DNA from: Actinopolyspora halophila DSM 43834
Lineage (GTDB): Bacteria > Actinomycetota > Actinomycetes > Mycobacteriales > Pseudonocardiaceae
Direction: 5' to 3'
DNA: 64,000 nt
Assembly (NCBI RefSeq): GCF_000371785.1
Contig: NZ_AQUI01000002.1
Coordinates: 310,001 to 374,000 of the forward strand
Position numbers and translations under genes: made by a program. Shown here piece by piece: positions 43,251 to 48,212 of this stretch. A model generated the notes under the pieces. The model saw nothing but the letters and a program-made list of their open reading frames with translations, did no database searches and was not told the origin of the DNA. The first letter of the stretch is position 1, and each line of letters starts with the position of its first letter.

Positions 43251-43340
43251 GGAGGCTTCGCCTAGTCTGGTCTATGGCGCCGCACTGCTAATGCGGTAAG
43301 GGGCAACCCCCCTTCCCGGGTTCGAATCCCGGAGCCTCCG
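43251..43340 (+). tRNA. tRNA-Ser (anticodon GCU)
   Basis: The acceptor GGAGGCT pairs with AGCCTCC. The anticodon stem-loop CGCA-CTGCTAA-TGCG carries GCT. The long variable arm (GGGGCAACCCCCC) marks a serine tRNA. CCA is not encoded. Confidence 0.95.
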
Positions 43341-43379
43341 CCGGGGCTTCCACGCGAGTGGGAGTTCACAACTGAACAC

Positions 43380-43452
<73 letters not shown>

Positions 43453-43472
43453 CGTCTGGTCGAGACAGCTTG

Positions 43473-43499
43473 AAACCCCCGGTTCGCTGGGGGTTTTTT
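43473..43499 (+). terminator. Intrinsic terminator after the tRNA pair
   Basis: AAACCCCC and GGGGGTTT pair around GGTTCGCT, followed by a T run. Confidence 0.9.
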
Positions 43500-43673
43500 G
43501 CTGTTCGGGGGTGGTGGATCCGTGGGTGTCGCGGAGGCGGTTGCCAATTTGTCGCCGACTTTCCCGCGGTGCTGCCGACCGAGTCCGGTGTCGGCCGCGT
43601 GACCCCGTCGTCGTCGACGCGGCGGATCGCGTCGACGACAACGCGGTGGGGTCGTGGTGTTGTTCGTACCCGT

Positions 43674-44801
43674 TCAGTTCGGCAGCGTCGTGGTCGGAGT
43701 TTCGGGGCAGTCGATCCACAACTCGTGCGTGCCGTCCCGGTGAGCCGTGATTCCGTATCGATCGATGCCGGGCCGGTTCGCCCGCTGCCACGAGGTCAGC
43801 ACCGGCTCCAGCTCGTCCCACAACCGCCGGGGGCCCGACTGGTGGACCCGCTGGTTGGCCGGTTCGACGCGAGCCCACGAACCGGACGTGGGGTGGACCC
43901 AGTGCCAGGTGGTGACCTGCTCGTCCTCGGCGGTGCATACGAGTCGGCTCCGGGCGGCGGTCAGTGACGTGAACAGCGACATCGTGGAGAAGTCGATCGC
44001 GGCCGGTACGGCTGCCGGGCGAGTGGTGTCCGCGGCCCCGGTGGTTTCGGCCACCACGCGGTCGGTTGGCCACTGGGCGGGTTCGGAGGGAGAGCGCAGC
44101 GGCATGAATCCGGCCCAGTCGAGGAACCGGCCGGACACACTGCCGGAGCGGGTGCGCCGCAGCAGCGCGATCCCTCTGGACAGGTTGACCAGGATCGCCC
44201 CGTTGGTGGAGAGCTGATCGAGCCACGCGGTCGGCACCCGGTCCACTCCGCAGGTCGCGATGATCCGGTTGAACGGTGCCTGTTCGACAAGACCGTCAGC
44301 ACCGTCGCCACACAGCACGGTCGGGGCGTATCCGGCGGCGTCCAGTGCGGTACGGGCGTTGCCGATCAGCTCGGGGCTCACGTCGATGGTGGCGACGTGC
44401 GAGCTGCCCACGACTTCGCACAGCAGGGCTGTGCTGTAGCCGGTTCCGGTTCCGACCTCGAGCACTCGGTCGGACGGGTCGAGATCCAGTGCGTCCAGCA
44501 TCGTTGCCATCAGGCTCGGTTCCGTTGAGGAGCTGGTGCCGATTCCGGTCTCGTCGAACCGGGTGATCAGCGTGTCGTCGCTGTAGGCGGCAGACAACGC
44601 GGCGGCGCGCTGTGTCGGATCGGTGGTGTCGTAGCTGGTGTAGCTCCCGGTGGGCGGGTGGAACAGGGTGAACTGGGGTGCGAACAGGTGGCGCGGCACC
44701 GCTCGGAAGGCGGCGCGCCACGTGGTCCGCAGGTTCAGTCTCTCGGTCAGGTGATCGGCGAGCGCGCCACGGTACCGGGCGGTGTCGTCGGTGGAGGTCA
44801 T
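43674..44801 (-). CDS. tgmC: PIMT-like methyltransferase of an ATP-grasp RiPP system
   Basis: A 375-residue SAM methyltransferase related to protein-L-isoaspartate O-methyltransferase. Visible parts are an N-terminal RYRGALADHLTERL, the PIMT-type substrate/SAM loop SSSTEPSLMATML (residues 90-102), SAM motif I VLEVGTGTGYSTALL (113-127), and a C-terminal domain longer than in housekeeping PIMT. This is the layout of methyltransferases paired with graspetide ligases. In fuscimiditide-type systems the enzyme methylates an Asp of the cyclised peptide, which then forms an aspartimide. The start overlaps the ligase stop by four bases, so it is the last gene of the operon. Confidence 0.9.
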   Translation of the reverse strand: MTSTDDTARYRGALADHLTERLNLRTTWRAAFRAVPRHLFAPQFTLFHPPTGSYTSYDTTDPTQRAAALSAAYSDDTLITRFDETGIGTSSSTEPSLMATMLDALDLDPSDRVLEVGTGTGYSTALLCEVVGSSHVATIDVSPELIGNARTALDAAGYAPTVLCGDGADGLVEQAPFNRIIATCGVDRVPTAWLDQLSTNGAILVNLSRGIALLRRTRSGSVSGRFLDWAGFMPLRSPSEPAQWPTDRVVAETTGAADTTRPAAVPAAIDFSTMSLFTSLTAARSRLVCTAEDEQVTTWHWVHPTSGSWARVEPANQRVHQSGPRRLWDELEPVLTSWQRANRPGIDRYGITAHRDGTHELWIDCPETPTTTLPN

Positions 44802-45763
44802 GTTGTCTCCGGCTCGGTGAGTTCATCGGCCAGGGCTCGGGTGATCGGTTCGCGGAGTTGTTCGATCCAGGCCCACTGGCCGTTCGGGTTGAGGTCGCCG
44901 ATGAAGTGCCAGCGGTCGTCGTGATCGACCACGAAGTCGGGGGAGGCGGACACCAGACCCAGCCGGGCCATGAGCGCACGCAGTCCCGCGCTGACGGTGC
45001 TGGGCACTTCGATCGGGGTGATGCTGAGCTCGTCGTGGCAGTCCCGCCAGTCCACCGTGCCCGCTCCGGGCGGGATCTCCAACCGCGCGGCGAACACGAG
45101 ATTGCCGACCACGGTGCAGCGCACCGCATAGGCGCATTCGACCCGCCGCTGGAACAGATGCGTGGTGCGCGCGACTCCCTCGGTGATCTCGTTCGCGGTC
45201 ACGGTGGTGGCCCGCAGCGCCACGCGGTGACCGTTCTCGCTTCCCGGTCCCCCACCCAACGGTTTGTAGATCACGGATTTGCCCGCGCAGAATTCCCGAG
45301 CGCGTTCGGGGTCGTTGGTCAGCAGTGATTCGGGAACGTCGAGTCCGCATGTCACCGCCGTTTGGAGCTGTGCGGGTTTCTGACTGGCGAGTGCCGCCGC
45401 GTCTGGGCGGTTGATCCACCGGGCCGGGAGCGCAGCGAGCAGACCGCCGAGACCCGTATGAGCCTCGGCGGCTACCCAGTCGCGTTCCGTTGCGGTCAGC
45501 TTGGGATGTGGCGCGGCTGGTGCCGGTTTGCGGTACCACACACCGCGTACTGCTGAAAGGTCCACATCCCGGTGTGTTCCGCGCAGCGCTCCGGTCCAGC
45601 GGTTCCGGCCGGGCACGAGATACGCGGCCTGGCTCATCCGTTCCGGAAAGTCGGACAGGTCGAACCGGGCCACGCCGATGCCGCGCTCGTGCAGTTCGTT
45701 CACCACCAAGTCGGCGGTGATGTCCTGATCGCGGGTGATGACAACAACGGAAGGCGCTGACAT
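44798..45763 (-). CDS. tgmB: ATP-grasp ribosomal peptide maturase (graspetide ligase)
   Basis: A 321-residue ATP-grasp ligase that should join Asp/Glu side chains to Ser/Thr or Lys side chains of the precursor, using ATP through an acyl-phosphate. Motifs: VVVITRDQDITADLVVNELHERG at the N-terminus, GVWYRKPAP, the nucleotide-binding VIYKPLGGG, and FIGDLNPNGQWAWIEQL, which carries the metal-binding Asp and Asn near the C-terminus. It starts one base after the precursor stop and overlaps the methyltransferase gene. The family match is to the SAV_5884-type maturases of Streptomyces. Confidence 0.93.
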   Translation of the reverse strand: MSAPSVVVITRDQDITADLVVNELHERGIGVARFDLSDFPERMSQAAYLVPGRNRWTGALRGTHRDVDLSAVRGVWYRKPAPAAPHPKLTATERDWVAAEAHTGLGGLLAALPARWINRPDAAALASQKPAQLQTAVTCGLDVPESLLTNDPERAREFCAGKSVIYKPLGGGPGSENGHRVALRATTVTANEITEGVARTTHLFQRRVECAYAVRCTVVGNLVFAARLEIPPGAGTVDWRDCHDELSITPIEVPSTVSAGLRALMARLGLVSASPDFVVDHDDRWHFIGDLNPNGQWAWIEQLREPITRALADELTEPETT

Positions 45764-45764
45764 G

Positions 45765-46052
45765 TCAGTCCCTGTCCACGAACCACTGCATGTCGTACCG
45801 GGTGTCGGTGTGCGTGGTCATCCGCGGTGACAGCGGGTCCGCCACGACCGGATCACCTTCGGAATCCACATTGATTTGTCGTTCGGAGTCGTAGGTCAGG
45901 CCGCTCAGGTCGGTCATCGCTTCCCCGTCGGCCAGGGCGGTACCACGGGTCAGTCCGAAGGGACGCAGTGCTGTGCCGCTGGGCACGTCCGTGGACAGGT
46001 CTTCCGCTGGTGTGCGGGAGGGGAACAGGTTGGTTTCGGGAACGCCGGTCAC
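45765..46052 (-). CDS. tgmA: Graspetide-type RiPP precursor peptide
   Basis: GTG 46052 is preceded by GGAAAGGAATTCACT, a good ribosome site, and gives 95 residues. The frame stays open 288 bases upstream, but that part is Arg/Pro-rich and lacks a site. Residues 1-46 form the leader with the recognition-type motif RPFGLTRG (30-37). The core, from about 47, contains LTYDSERQINVDSEGDPV (52-69), the family YDxxxQ pattern, and a second acidic/hydroxyl segment PRMTTHTDTRYDMQWFVDRD (76-95). Asp, Glu, Thr and Ser supply donors and acceptors for side-chain crosslinks; the only Lys-like acceptors (Lys) are absent, so esters rather than amides are expected. The gene abuts the ligase. Confidence 0.86.
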   Translation of the reverse strand: MTGVPETNLFPSRTPAEDLSTDVPSGTALRPFGLTRGTALADGEAMTDLSGLTYDSERQINVDSEGDPVVADPLSPRMTTHTDTRYDMQWFVDRD

Positions 46053-46336
46053 AGTGAATTCCTTTCCGTGTTTCCTCTTCTCAGCACCCGGATCGGCTCG
46101 GGCCGAACCGGGTGGGCTCGGGCCACGACTCCGTGCCGGGGACTGCAGGGCGCGCAACCCCTTCAGCACTCGGGCGAGCAGTACCGGGGTCGGCTCGGCG
46201 CGCCGCGGTCGACCCGGCCGCCTGCTCTCGTGTGGGCCGGTTGTCGGCAGTGTTCCGGTGAAGGCGAGCCGGTGGCCGGGCAGTCGGCACGGGCGGAACC
46301 GGTGTCGTCCGAGGTAGGGGCGGGGCCGGTGGGCGC

Positions 46337-46564
46337 TCACCGTTCGGCCTCCACGATCGCCGGGTGTGCGTTCTCGGCCGTTGTGAGCTCGCCCGATTCG
46401 TCCGAGTACTCACGCAGTGCGGCGGCGAGTTCGTCGAGTGCTTCGGCCAGGGCGTGCCGGTCAGTGGCCGGAGGCTGCTTGCCGCCGAGTTCGTAGGCGG
46501 CTTCGTCGAGCATCCATTGAGCTCGGCGCAGCAGTGTCGCCAGCTGCGTGTGCGGTTGGCTCAT
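46337..46564 (-). CDS. Small helical protein of the RiPP cluster
   Basis: Seventy-five residues, unrecognised. It is predicted to be two helices (HTQLATLLRRAQWMLDEAAYEL and DRHALAEALDELAAALREY) with an acidic C-terminus. There is no signal peptide. The start overlaps the stop of the 74-residue gene by four bases, so both are coupled. A similar short helical protein is often seen near XRE regulators in actinomycete peptide clusters; a role in regulation or precursor handling is only a guess. Confidence 0.75.
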   Translation of the reverse strand: MSQPHTQLATLLRRAQWMLDEAAYELGGKQPPATDRHALAEALDELAAALREYSDESGELTTAENAHPAIVEAER

Positions 46565-46785
46565 CGGGTCTCACCGCCTCGGGTGAGCCGGTCGAGCAGC
46601 GTGGTCAGCGCGTCGCGCAATTCGCGAGCCTGCTCGGGCGTCCACACCGTCCGGTGGAACACCGTGGGTGTGTCGATCCGGAGCTGCTTGCCCGAGCGGT
46701 GCAGCACGAACGATTCCCGTCCGCCGGATTCCAGGGTCGTGCAGCGGACCTTGATGTGGTCGGTTTCAGTGGATCTCGTGACCAT
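46561..46785 (-). CDS. Small beta-helix protein of the RiPP cluster
   Basis: Seventy-four residues, unrecognised. The N-terminal half reads as a strand pair (IKVRCTTLESG and SFVLHRSGKQLRIDT), followed by FHRTVWTPEQARELRDALTTLL, a motif common at the end of small actinomycete proteins linked to XRE regulators. It follows the regulator gene by 81 bases and overlaps the next small gene, so it may be the first gene of the biosynthetic operon. Confidence 0.72.
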   Translation of the reverse strand: MVTRSTETDHIKVRCTTLESGGRESFVLHRSGKQLRIDTPTVFHRTVWTPEQARELRDALTTLLDRLTRGGETR

Positions 46786-46843
46786 GCCCGAAGCATCGGC
46801 CGGACAGTGCTGTGACGTGCAGGGGTTGCGCCATGCGTTTCCG

Positions 46844-46853
46844 TATGCGCATA
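46844..46853. promoter_or_regulatory. TATGCGCATA palindrome in front of the small RiPP genes
   Basis: A perfect 10-bp palindrome inside the 81-base gap between the regulator stop and the 74-residue gene. It sits where a promoter or operator for the downstream genes would be. Binding by the XRE protein is inferred only. Confidence 0.35.
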
Positions 46854-46866
46854 ACGTGCGGGTAGG

Positions 46867-47853
46867 TTATCGGCGCTGTTCGGCCAGGGCGAAGGCTTGT
46901 CGGTACTCGAATGTCCATTCCCCGGCGCGCTGGTCCGTGGGTAGCCCGTCCAGGCCGGCGCCGAGGTGATCGGCTGCTGCGGCGTAGTCGTTCAAGGACA
47001 GGTGGGCCAGACCGAAGTTGAGTCGATGGAACGTCGGAGTCAGCCAGTAGGCAGTCTGGGGAGGTTCGTCCCGGGCTGCGGTGTCGATCATCTTTCCTGC
47101 CGTGTCCAACAGGCGAAGCGCGCTGTCGACCTGGTCGAGTTCGGCGTAGCCCTGCGCGGCTTGGGCGGCGGCTCCGACCTGCTGTGCGAGGTGGGCGCCC
47201 GGGGTGTGGTGTTCGGCCAGAAACCACCGCACGATTCCCCGTGAGTTCCCTCGCTGCCTGGCCAGATACCCCTTGAAGTTCGCCGCTTGGGCGGCCAGAA
47301 CTCCGTTTCCGATCTCGTCTGCGACCCGTTCGGCGTCATCGAGCAGCCGCACGGCGTCCCGATCTCGGCGTGCCTCGGCGTGTAGCCATCCGGCGAACTG
47401 CACGTACTCCGCCCCGACGTCGGCCAGGGCGCGCTGGTGGGGACCGCCTGCCTGGCGTAGCAACCCGGTCACGGTGTCCACCTGCGCCATGACAGTCGGA
47501 ATCAGCGGTTCCGGGCCGAGCGTGTCGTCCAGCCTGCGCTGGGCGGCCAACACCTCCGCGAGCGCGGTCACGGTCGCTGCGTCGATCCGGTGCGGCTGCT
47601 CCAATCCCCGGGCGAGCCGCTGCTGATCGTCCGGCGTGAGCAACCCGTTGGTCGGATCCGCCAGCGTGGCCAACTCTCGGTCCGAACCGAGCAGCTCGTC
47701 CAAGCGACGTGCCATCGACACGTCAACCGCCTGTCGGTCGGACTCGTACCGCGACAGCGAGGACTGACTGATATGCGCCTGCCTGGCCAGCTGCGGCTGG
47801 GAGAATCCCGCCAACGCACGCAACCGGCGCAACGCTTGCCCGAACGTCTCCAC
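46867..47853 (-). CDS. XRE-family regulator with TPR-like C-terminal domain
   Basis: A 328-residue protein. Residues 1-60 are a lambda-repressor-type helix-turn-helix (LRALAGFSQPQLARQAHISQSSLSRYE, in which the recognition helix follows SQSS). Residues about 110-328 form helical TPR-like repeats (EYVQFAGWLHAEARRD, ANFKGYLARQRGN, HRLNFGLAHLSLNDYAAA), as in large actinomycete cytoplasmic regulators of quorum or peptide response. It is first in the same-strand run leading to the precursor, ligase and methyltransferase, so it probably controls them; a bound peptide or small molecule could be the signal. Confidence 0.88.
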   Translation of the reverse strand: METFGQALRRLRALAGFSQPQLARQAHISQSSLSRYESDRQAVDVSMARRLDELLGSDRELATLADPTNGLLTPDDQQRLARGLEQPHRIDAATVTALAEVLAAQRRLDDTLGPEPLIPTVMAQVDTVTGLLRQAGGPHQRALADVGAEYVQFAGWLHAEARRDRDAVRLLDDAERVADEIGNGVLAAQAANFKGYLARQRGNSRGIVRWFLAEHHTPGAHLAQQVGAAAQAAQGYAELDQVDSALRLLDTAGKMIDTAARDEPPQTAYWLTPTFHRLNFGLAHLSLNDYAAAADHLGAGLDGLPTDQRAGEWTFEYRQAFALAEQRR

Positions 47854-48035
47854 GGTGCACCTCTTCGCCGTGCCCCTTCACCGCCCTACGGCGTTCCGCA
47901 GGGCAACCGCGGAGAAGAGACGCCCACCACACTACCGAGCACGCGATCAGGTGACGAGGCTTCGGGAGCTACTCGCCAACGCCCACCAGGGCGGCCCGTT
48001 AGCAGCGAGCGGGCCGCGGACTCGCGGCAGATCGA

Positions 48036-48125
48036 TGAGAAACCCCGCGTGCGCGGGGCCTACGCGAGGCACGTCGCTCGACCAGCGGCTACGGGCGGTC
48101 CATCCCCGCGTGTGCGGGGCCTGCC
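48036..48125 (-). CRISPR. Two-repeat type I-E-like CRISPR relic
   Basis: Two 29-base units centred on CCCCGCGTGYGCGGGGCC (core starts 48043 and 48104) are exactly 61 bases apart, the period of type I-E arrays (29 + 32). On the minus strand the first unit reads GCCCCGCACACGCGGGGATG and continues GACCG, close to actinobacterial I-E repeats. The second matches in the hairpin but degenerates after CGCGGGG, as terminal repeats do. No third unit at plus or minus 61 bases and no cas genes are present. The rest of the gap 47854-48212 shows nothing else. Confidence 0.5.
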
Positions 48126-48212
48126 CCTTGTTGTCCTGCGGTTTCGCTGTCGCGTTGTTCGGTTGTGACCTTCGGTGCCAGCGGTGTGGATCCTAGCCTC
48201 CACCGGCCCCGG

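What the first reader, a model, noticed from the sequence alone, without database searches (positions are those of the whole stretch)
43674..47853. Complete graspetide-type RiPP cluster with a PIMT-like methyltransferase
Six same-strand genes lie in order: XRE/TPR regulator, two small unknown proteins, an RPFGL-leader precursor, an ATP-grasp ligase starting one base after the precursor, and an isoaspartate-methyltransferase-like enzyme overlapping the ligase. The families match the tgmA/B/C triad and fuscimiditide-type biosynthesis (established). The core does not look like a known product to me, so the compound is probably new (inference). The cluster sits next to a tRNA-Arg gene and a CRISPR relic in an otherwise conserved backbone, as an acquired island would.
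Basis: partly seen in the sequence, partly recalled or inferred. Interest (0 to 1): 0.85.

Follow-up and report, generated by a model that had tools for sequence, protein, structure and literature searches.

The report
Graspetide operon behind swappable control cassette
A salt-loving bacterium carries genes for a probably new, cross-linked small peptide of a known family, and the small genes in front of it are a shared, control-like unit that in related bacteria sits in front of quite different weapons such as DNA-editing toxins.

Summary
The operon encodes an RPFGL-leader precursor (45765-46052), an ATP-grasp ligase and a PIMT-like methyltransferase: a group 13 graspetide (graspimiditide) cluster in an Actinopolyspora-type genome, under purifying selection (dN/dS 0.19-0.35 for these three genes). 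Predicted from the core MTTHTDTRYDMQWFVDRD: esters T84-D93 and T80-D95, aspartimide at D87. The motif [T/S]-x2-D-x5-D occurs in 18 of 18 related precursors inspected (window included): an 8-residue loop against the 10-12 reported.

The surprise is upstream. The 'two small unknown proteins' (plus a third, missed) are not graspetide-specific. They form a cassette with 70 copies in 10 genomes, almost confined to Actinopolyspora, in front of graspetides (8 of 68 copies examined), DddA-like deaminases (15), T7SS-type proteins (4) or nothing recognised (38). At this same tRNA-Arg site one sister keeps regulator and cassette but carries deaminase/Imm1; another keeps the graspetide but has a different regulator. 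Sister genomes show integrase, tRNA repeats and an empty site; the window itself has no repeat. No chemistry was tested; control by the cassette is inferred.

The parts
46867..47853 (-). XRE/TPR regulator, NsdA family, 328 aa
   Evidence: HTH_31 7e-14, NF053720 103.6 bits; same cluster of regulators before S74 in G003, G005 and G007 (L154, L155, L112)
46826..46854 (-). operator-like element between regulator and S74 (palindromic in sisters, degenerate here)
   Evidence: pattern, drawn from these four loci, matches once in the window (0 of 100 shuffles) and at 4 places in 10 genomes with up to 2 mismatches, all between the 328-aa regulator and S74; palindrome above the shuffled maximum in L112 and L155, not in L154 or the window
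46561..46785 (-). S74: first small protein of the cassette, 74 aa
   Evidence: 70 copies in the 10 genus genomes at E below 1e-15; dN/dS 0.28 against L025
46337..46564 (-). S75: second small protein, 75 aa, start overlaps the S74 stop
   Evidence: follows S74 in 65 of 68 copies examined; dN/dS 0.20
46143..46340 (-).
   Evidence: alignment A5; S3, or an alternative small protein (19 of its 20 members end in the same kind of tail), in 63 of 68 copies; weaker constraint, dN/dS 0.63
46060..46067 (-). ribosome-binding site GGAAAGGA of the precursor
   Evidence: identical in L025
45765..46052 (-). precursor peptide (tgmA-like), 95 aa, GTG start
   Evidence: TIGR04186 30.9 bits over cut-off 25; 89% identical to L025
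45951..45965 (-). RPFGL leader motif (residues 30-34)
   Evidence: RPFG is named as the likely ligase recognition motif in PMC13003496 (passages read)
45768..45821 (-). predicted core M78-D95, MTTHTDTRYDMQWFVDRD
   Evidence: T80, D83, T84, D87, D93, D95 invariant in 5 genus sequences (whose printed numbers are one higher); [T/S]-x2-D-x5-D in 18 of 18 cores inspected
44798..45763 (-). ATP-grasp graspetide synthetase (tgmB-like), 321 aa
   Evidence: TIGR04187 5e-103; homologous to six solved ATP-grasp ligase sequences incl. AMdnB and CdnC; GDLN in place of LExN
43674..44801 (-). PIMT-like O-methyltransferase with C-terminal extension (tgmC-like), 375 aa
   Evidence: TIGR04188 3e-96, PCMT 5e-29; WQRANRP in place of WXXXGXP
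43380..43453 (+). tRNA-Arg(acg), integration site in sister genomes
48043..48122 (+). two-repeat CRISPR relic, outside the block missing from G002
   Evidence: similar repeats also in G002

Best explanation
A graspimiditide (group 13 graspetide) operon carried as cargo behind a genus-specific, control-like cassette at a tRNA-Arg integration site. Working model: the RPFGL leader binds the ATP-grasp ligase, which phosphorylates C-terminal Asp side chains and closes two nested Thr-Asp esters (inner T84-D93 with the 8-residue loop RYDMQWFV, outer T80-D95). The PIMT-like enzyme then methylates D87 in the loop; the ester collapses onto the M88 amide to an aspartimide, which may open to isoAsp. A protease encoded elsewhere removes the leader. 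Expression is set by the XRE/TPR regulator acting at the S74 promoter; S74-S75-S3 are a shared front module, not biosynthetic enzymes. Shown here by sequence: gene families, invariant residues, selection, cassette sharing, exchange of cargo and of regulator. Inferred: all chemistry, the ring pattern, the aspartimide site, the protease, and control by the regulator.
For: Families. 22 ligase positions, among them K167, R215, D238, R240, are invariant in the 29 rows longer than 280 letters. Purifying selection. Core: six T/D positions invariant in 5 genus sequences; D87 and D93 invariant and T84 Thr or Ser in 16 of 16 aligned precursors; [T/S]-x2-D-x5-D in 18 of 18 cores. Precedent: fuscimiditide esters T3-D22 and T7-D18 (PMC12291112 passages), aspartimide in the loop (PMC13001092 section 9); that review lists Met, Ser, His, Asn and Thr among possible residues after the modified Asp, and the relatives here have DM, DS, DH, DN and DT. 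Cassette: 70 S74 copies in 10 genomes; 36 of 36 confirmed loci of the named collection are Actinopolyspora; cargo census; enrichment against a chance fraction of 0.0028. Exchange at one site: G007 keeps regulator and cassette with DddA-like and Imm1; L025 keeps cassette and graspetide with an XRE of another cluster. The ligase of window and L025 groups with four enzymes of other genera (100/99).
Against: No product or expression data. Ligase and methyltransferase score below the curated NCBIfam cut-offs. The window also has T79 and T82 and the D83 that is invariant in its genus, so more or other linkages, or modification of D83, are possible. The 18 cores were chosen as kin of this core with profiles seeded by it, which favours equal spacing; other core types met in the same searches (L021-L030, most of L243-L267) were not counted. 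The operator palindrome is degenerate in the window copy and not above shuffles in L154. 38 of 68 cassette copies have no recognised cargo, S3 is weakly constrained here, and no sigma-70-like promoter was found.
Confidence: 0.72

Rival explanations
1. S74, S75 and S3 are partner proteins needed for graspetide biosynthesis, as the PpiC-like partner is for rosaritide.
For: Partner-protein dependence is known in group 21 (PMC13097080, parts 1-2 of 6 read); S74 lies within 4 kb upstream in 8 of 13 near-complete clusters of the genus.
Against: No trace of the cassette by three clusters with the same core type (L019, L020, L029); present before deaminase, T7SS-type, radical SAM and unknown cargo; the Saccharopolyspora pogona plasmid relative (ligase 68% identical) is preceded by other small genes.
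Confidence: 0.08
2. Cassette and cargo merely share hot spots of integration; the cassette does not control the cargo.
For: The site is mobile and degenerate copies exist; 38 of 68 cassette copies have no recognised cargo; in L109 and L149 phage genes on the opposite strand follow.
Against: Same strand, tight spacing and order; 15 of 57 DddA-like matches and 8 of 16 ligase matches (three of the 16 are short remnants) lie within 4 kb downstream on the same strand, against a chance fraction of 0.0028.
Confidence: 0.35
3. Different ring pattern: modification at D83 instead of D87, or three or more esters using T79/T82 and D83/D87.
For: D83 is invariant in the 5 genus sequences; T79 and T82 are extra donors in the window and L025; Thr is listed as a possible residue after the modified Asp.
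Against: D87 is invariant in 16 of 16, D83 is not; T79 and T82 are not conserved.
Confidence: 0.25
4. A cryptic or decaying cluster that makes nothing.
For: S3 has lost its stop; in the genus one sister cluster has its ligase in three fragments (G009:C14), one ligase has an internal TAG (G006), and short ligase remnants stand in G002, G005 and G006.
Against: Precursor, ligase and methyltransferase are intact with dN/dS 0.19-0.35 against L025; ribosome-binding site kept.
Confidence: 0.1

Closest known systems
Fuscimiditide (ThfA/ThfB/ThfM, Thermobifida fusca), group 13 graspetide / graspimiditide
   Same: RPFG leader, Thr donors four apart (T-x3-T) followed by C-terminal Asp acceptors, PIMT-like enzyme; predicted two-ester stem-loop with an Asp in the loop (PMC12291112 and PMC13003496 passages; PMC13001092 sections 9 and 11).
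   Different: Fuscimiditide has a 10-residue loop and D-x3-D, and in all four characterised graspimiditides Gly follows the modified Asp. Here an 8-residue loop, D-x-D and Asp-Met are predicted; the ligase has GDLN with one inserted residue instead of LExN.
tgmA/tgmB/methyltransferase cluster on a Saccharopolyspora pogona plasmid (NZ_CP031144.1)
   Same: Best plasmid match of the ligase (68%) and nearest row outside the genus in the tree; core ends TSYDTQYDMQWFVDQD; same precursor-ligase-methyltransferase order.
   Different: Preceded by divergent HTH and DUF397 genes and two other hypothetical genes, no S74/S75/S3.
WhiJ-BldB-AbaA/iosA loci of Streptomyces (XRE-DUF397)
   Same: Multi-copy XRE regulator loci next to small target genes that are strongly derepressed without BldB (PMC10294661, passages). 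47 of 68 S74 copies have an XRE/DUF5753-cluster gene upstream, many with a DUF397-cluster gene (one representative of each confirmed by Pfam).
   Different: S74 does not align with DUF397 (hhalign probability 0.3, few sequences); the window copy has an XRE/TPR regulator without DUF397.
DddA-like deaminase / Imm1 pairs
   Same: Occupy the place of the graspetide genes behind the same cassette at the same tRNA-Arg site in G007; DddA-like genes also there in G004 and G005.
   Different: Protein toxin and immunity genes, no ATP-grasp or RiPP genes.

Membership tests
Group 13 graspetides (graspimiditides) | ATP-grasp ligase of the graspetide synthetase family | tested here: met
   Full-length TIGR04187 match E 5e-103, homology to solved AMdnB/CdnC-type ligases, invariant residues and tree
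Group 13 graspetides (graspimiditides) | precursor with RPFG-type leader and Thr donors before C-terminal Asp acceptors | tested here: met
   TIGR04186 over cut-off; RPFGL and invariant T/D pattern
Group 13 graspetides (graspimiditides) | PIMT homologue in the cluster | tested here: met
   PCMT 5e-29, TIGR04188 3e-96, 375 aa with C-terminal extension
Group 13 graspetides (graspimiditides) | WXXXGXP motif in the PIMT C-terminal domain | tested here: inconclusive
   N for G in window and L025; D for G in L021-L023; G in the other relatives matched; no match printed for L065, L073, L075
Group 13 graspetides (graspimiditides) | omega-ester crosslinks in the product | not testable with these tools
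   needs co-expression and MS
Group 13 graspetides (graspimiditides) | aspartimide or isoAsp in the loop | not testable with these tools
   D87 invariant in 16 of 16 is only suggestive
NCBIfam TgmB (TIGR04187) and TgmC (TIGR04188) assignments | score over the curated cut-off | tested here: not met
   344.5 of 350 and 323.1 of 380 bits; the second cluster of this genome passes TIGR04187 with 370.2
Fuscimiditide-type core (narrow sense) | 10-12 residue loop, D-x3-D, Asp-Gly site | tested here: not met
   8-residue spacing, D-x-D, Asp-Met
BldB/DUF397 (for S74) | DUF397 domain | tested here: not met
   no DUF397 match for S74; hhalign with DUF397 probability 0.3 (shallow alignments)
Integrative element at tRNA-Arg | direct repeat of the tRNA 3' end and integrase | tested here: not met
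   no repeat in the window and no integrase among its genes; both present in sister G003, so a decayed element is inferred

The most novel reading that the evidence does not exclude
Actinopolyspora uses one interchangeable front cassette (XRE regulator, S74, S75, and S3 or a substitute with the same C-terminal LLxRVLxGLxRL-like tail) to run a set of otherwise unrelated weapons: aspartimide graspetides, DddA-like DNA deaminases with Imm1, T7SS-type proteins and possibly a radical-SAM peptide. Regulator and cargo exchange independently around the cassette at a tRNA site. This would make these graspimiditides part of the same conflict programme as protein toxins and would give a handle on when they are made.
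Probability: 0.35. Interest if true: 0.75.

Novelty: new variant of a known kind. Interest (0 to 1): 0.52.

Why it matters
In the parts of papers read here I met no natural role or trigger for group 13 graspetides, and their leader protease is said to be undetermined (PMC12291112, passages). Finding one as exchangeable cargo behind a control-like cassette that also fronts deaminase toxins suggests a role (competition) and a testable switch (the XRE/TPR regulator and the element before S74). The core subgroup (8-residue loop, Asp-Met site, GDLN ligase) is a compact test of what these ligases and methyltransferases accept. The cassette proteins match no Pfam or NCBIfam model.

Tried and rejected
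S3-precursor fusion: the window reads open from 46340 to the precursor stop, but L025 stops earlier and the linker carries frame-shifting indels; rejected. att repeat in the window: only 10-13 nt matches to the tRNA apart from itself; rejected. S74 as a DUF397/BldB protein: hhalign probability 0.3; not supported. Operator palindrome in the window: best arm 7 nt, inside the shuffled range; the element itself is present, but the pattern was drawn from it. Phage carriage: no tblastn match of the precursor in 50,697 phage records; one S74 match in viral contigs, whose contig position and numbers resemble the A. xinjiangensis locus L234. Search of viral contigs with A6 could not run. Promoter scan: 0 sigma-70-like sites in 43300-48300; 2 terminator-like sites, both on the + strand, against 2.5 expected. 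Defence library: the methyltransferase matches mad2 (50.9 bits) and the regulator capH and HTH_VI (about 30 bits) over part of their length only; read as shared methyltransferase and HTH domains, not a defence system. Structure prediction of S74 and S75 could not be run. Literature: searches for graspetide+ATP-grasp+aspartimide, group 13, fuscimiditide/amycolimiditide, DUF397/DUF5753, Actinopolyspora+RiPP, graspimiditide, DddA+Actinobacteria, Actinopolyspora+genomic island; in the listings and passages seen I met no description of the S74/S75/S3 cassette, but most subscription papers are not held.

Full report
What is there. Profile matches: TIGR04186 30.9 bits, TIGR04187 5e-103, TIGR04188 3e-96, NF053720 103.6 bits; the two enzymes miss their curated cut-offs. 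The same genome has a second ligase match at C2:3157567 that passes (370.2 bits), with its own precursor and methyltransferase.

Is it functional. The nearest relative, G008 (L025), has the cluster at the same tRNA-Ser/tRNA-Arg site. dN/dS is 0.21 (precursor), 0.19 (ligase), 0.35 (methyltransferase), 0.28 (S74), 0.20 (S75) and 0.63 (S3). The ribosome-binding site before GTG 46052 is kept. In the window S3 reads on into the precursor frame, but in L025 S3 stops first and the frames differ, so I reject a fusion.

The product. Fuscimiditide has esters T3-D22 and T7-D18 around a 10-residue loop (PMC12291112, passages). In all four characterised graspimiditides the methylation site lies in the loop and is followed by Gly (PMC13001092 section 9). 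The window core MTTHTDTRYDMQWFVDRD has Thr 80 and 84 (the same spacing of four) and Asp 93 and 95. In 16 precursors aligned, D87 and D93 are invariant and T84 is Thr or Ser. [T/S]-x2-D-x5-D occurs once in each of 18 cores inspected, window included, while the flanks vary. These 18 were picked as kin of this core; other core types found on the way (L021-L030, most of L243-L267) were not counted. I infer inner ester T84-D93, outer ester T80-D95 and modification of D87. The loop of 8 is shorter than the 10-12 given for graspimiditides. The review lists Met, Ser, His, Asn and Thr among possible residues after the modified Asp, so such cores were probably counted in earlier surveys; I could not read the original. 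Spread: the precursor profile matches 37 of 297 family genomes (E 0.01) and 24 of 394 class genomes (E 0.001), many with other cores. Most ligases of this core type carry GDLN with a one-residue insertion where others have mostly LExN: window, L019, L020, L025, L029, L064-L067, L073, L075, and GDVN in L071 with another core tail; L079, L241 and L242 have DVN without the insertion, and L240 and L241 share the loop spacing without the GDLN insertion. It is a clade marker, not a strict rule.

Where it came from. In the ligase tree the window and L025 group with four enzymes of other genera (100/99); the starred branches force at least three changes of the genus label, which may be gains or losses. 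I read this as more than one acquisition, not as proof. The nearest outside the genus is on a Saccharopolyspora pogona plasmid (68%, core TSYDTQYDMQWFVDQD). The tRNA pair is present in 10 of 10 genus genomes. G002 is an empty site: window 43511-47940 is replaced by 270 bp and the CRISPR relic region is kept. In G003 a tyrosine integrase lies next to the tRNA, with phage capsid and AAA genes, the S74 cassette, and a 33-nt exact copy of the tRNA 3' end 9.5 kb downstream; in G009 a 41-nt copy (95%) lies 3.3 kb downstream. The window itself has no such repeat. I infer a decayed integrative element.

The cassette. S74 matches: 10 of 10 genus genomes with 4 to 11 matches each, 70 in all at E below 1e-15, and one other genome (G077, 2e-13) among the 297 family genomes (2 of 46 genera). 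In the scan of named species genomes with one peptide pattern, 36 of 36 confirmed loci (40 stretches matched) are Actinopolyspora. For 68 of the 70 copies I fetched the surroundings (labels by ORF clusters): S75 follows in 65; S3, or an alternative small protein of which 19 of 20 end in the same kind of tail, in 63; upstream an XRE/DUF5753-cluster gene in 47, an XRE/TPR-cluster gene in 16 and neither in 5 (one of the 5, L025, does have an XRE). Downstream on the same strand: DddA-like in 15, graspetide genes in 8 (seven as labelled plus L025), methyltransferase without ligase in 3, a WXG100/T7SS-signal protein in 4 (one tested by Pfam), nothing recognised in 38. One of the 38 (L185) has a radical SAM/SPASM protein. 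Of 57 DddA-like matches in the genus 15, and of 16 ligase matches (three of them short remnants) 8, lie within 4 kb downstream on the same strand of S74; the chance fraction is 0.0028. Against a graspetide role: 5 of 13 near-complete graspetide clusters lack S74 upstream, and three of these (L019, L020, L029), which have the window's own core type, have no trace of the cassette.

Exchange on both sides. G007 has, at the same site, the window's type of regulator with S74 and S75 (window 46279-47965, 78% identical DNA) and S3, but then a 96-aa protein, a DddA-like protein (PF14428 4e-21) and Imm1 (6e-17); it has no TIGR04187 match. DddA-like genes sit at this site also in G004 and G005. Conversely G008 keeps S74 to methyltransferase but has an XRE of the 410-aa cluster in place of the window's regulator. 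A 28-nt pattern between the 328-aa regulator and S74 occurs 4 times in 10 genomes, each time there. Its palindrome exceeds 20 shuffles in L112 and L155, not in L154, and is degenerate in the window. Because these four regions are homologous throughout, their conservation alone does not prove an operator.

Reading. Best supported: a real group 13 graspimiditide operon with a probably new core variant, carried as cargo behind a cassette that in this genus also fronts protein toxins. A precedent for multi-copy XRE loci switching on small neighbours is WhiJ/BldB/AbaA in Streptomyces (PMC10294661, passages); S74 is not recognisably DUF397. That the cassette controls the cargo is inference.

Papers: PMC13097080 parts 1-2 of 6; PMC13001092 outline, sections 9 and 11; PMC10787088 outline, section 4, part 1 of 3 of section 5; PMC12291112, PMC13003496, PMC8939145, PMC7159879, PMC10294661, PMC10364602 passages only; all others search listings only.

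Noticed in passing
L022 (G000:C2:3153567-3162496): Second group 13 graspetide cluster of the same genome, with XRE/DUF5753, DUF397, S74, S75, S3 upstream and a different core (TAYTVSNNDGDEGVSEDWINDFAPDF).
   Followed up: partly
L182, L189, L190: A TIGR04188-like methyltransferase (329 bits, below the cut-off of 380; tested for the L190 protein) directly behind the cassette with no ligase found in the stretch: orphan, or a methyltransferase-only peptide system.
   Followed up: partly
L109 (G003:C1:195800-213800): Apparently intact integrative element at tRNA-Arg with integrase, capsid-family and AAA genes. A 17-nt hairpin (one mismatch) appears to cover the ribosome-binding site and start of S74; similar 11-13 nt ones in five other loci, each above its 20 shuffles.
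   Followed up: partly
L171 and L154 (G003:C1:4280725-4293662): Two cassettes in tandem, each followed by a DddA-like gene and an Imm1-cluster gene, with different regulators.
   Followed up: no
L185: Radical SAM/SPASM protein with a Cys-rich tail plus an ATPase-like protein behind S74-S75 and the alternative S3: possible further peptide-modifying cargo.
   Followed up: partly
window 48043-48122; G000:C2 771 kb, 818 kb, 3090 kb: Matches to one CRISPR-like repeat pattern at 61-nt steps at four places, the window one being a two-repeat relic.
   Followed up: partly
G009:C14:1172-2106 (L030): Graspetide ligase broken into three fragments beside a complete-looking precursor; short ligase remnants in G002, G005 and G006.
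   Followed up: no
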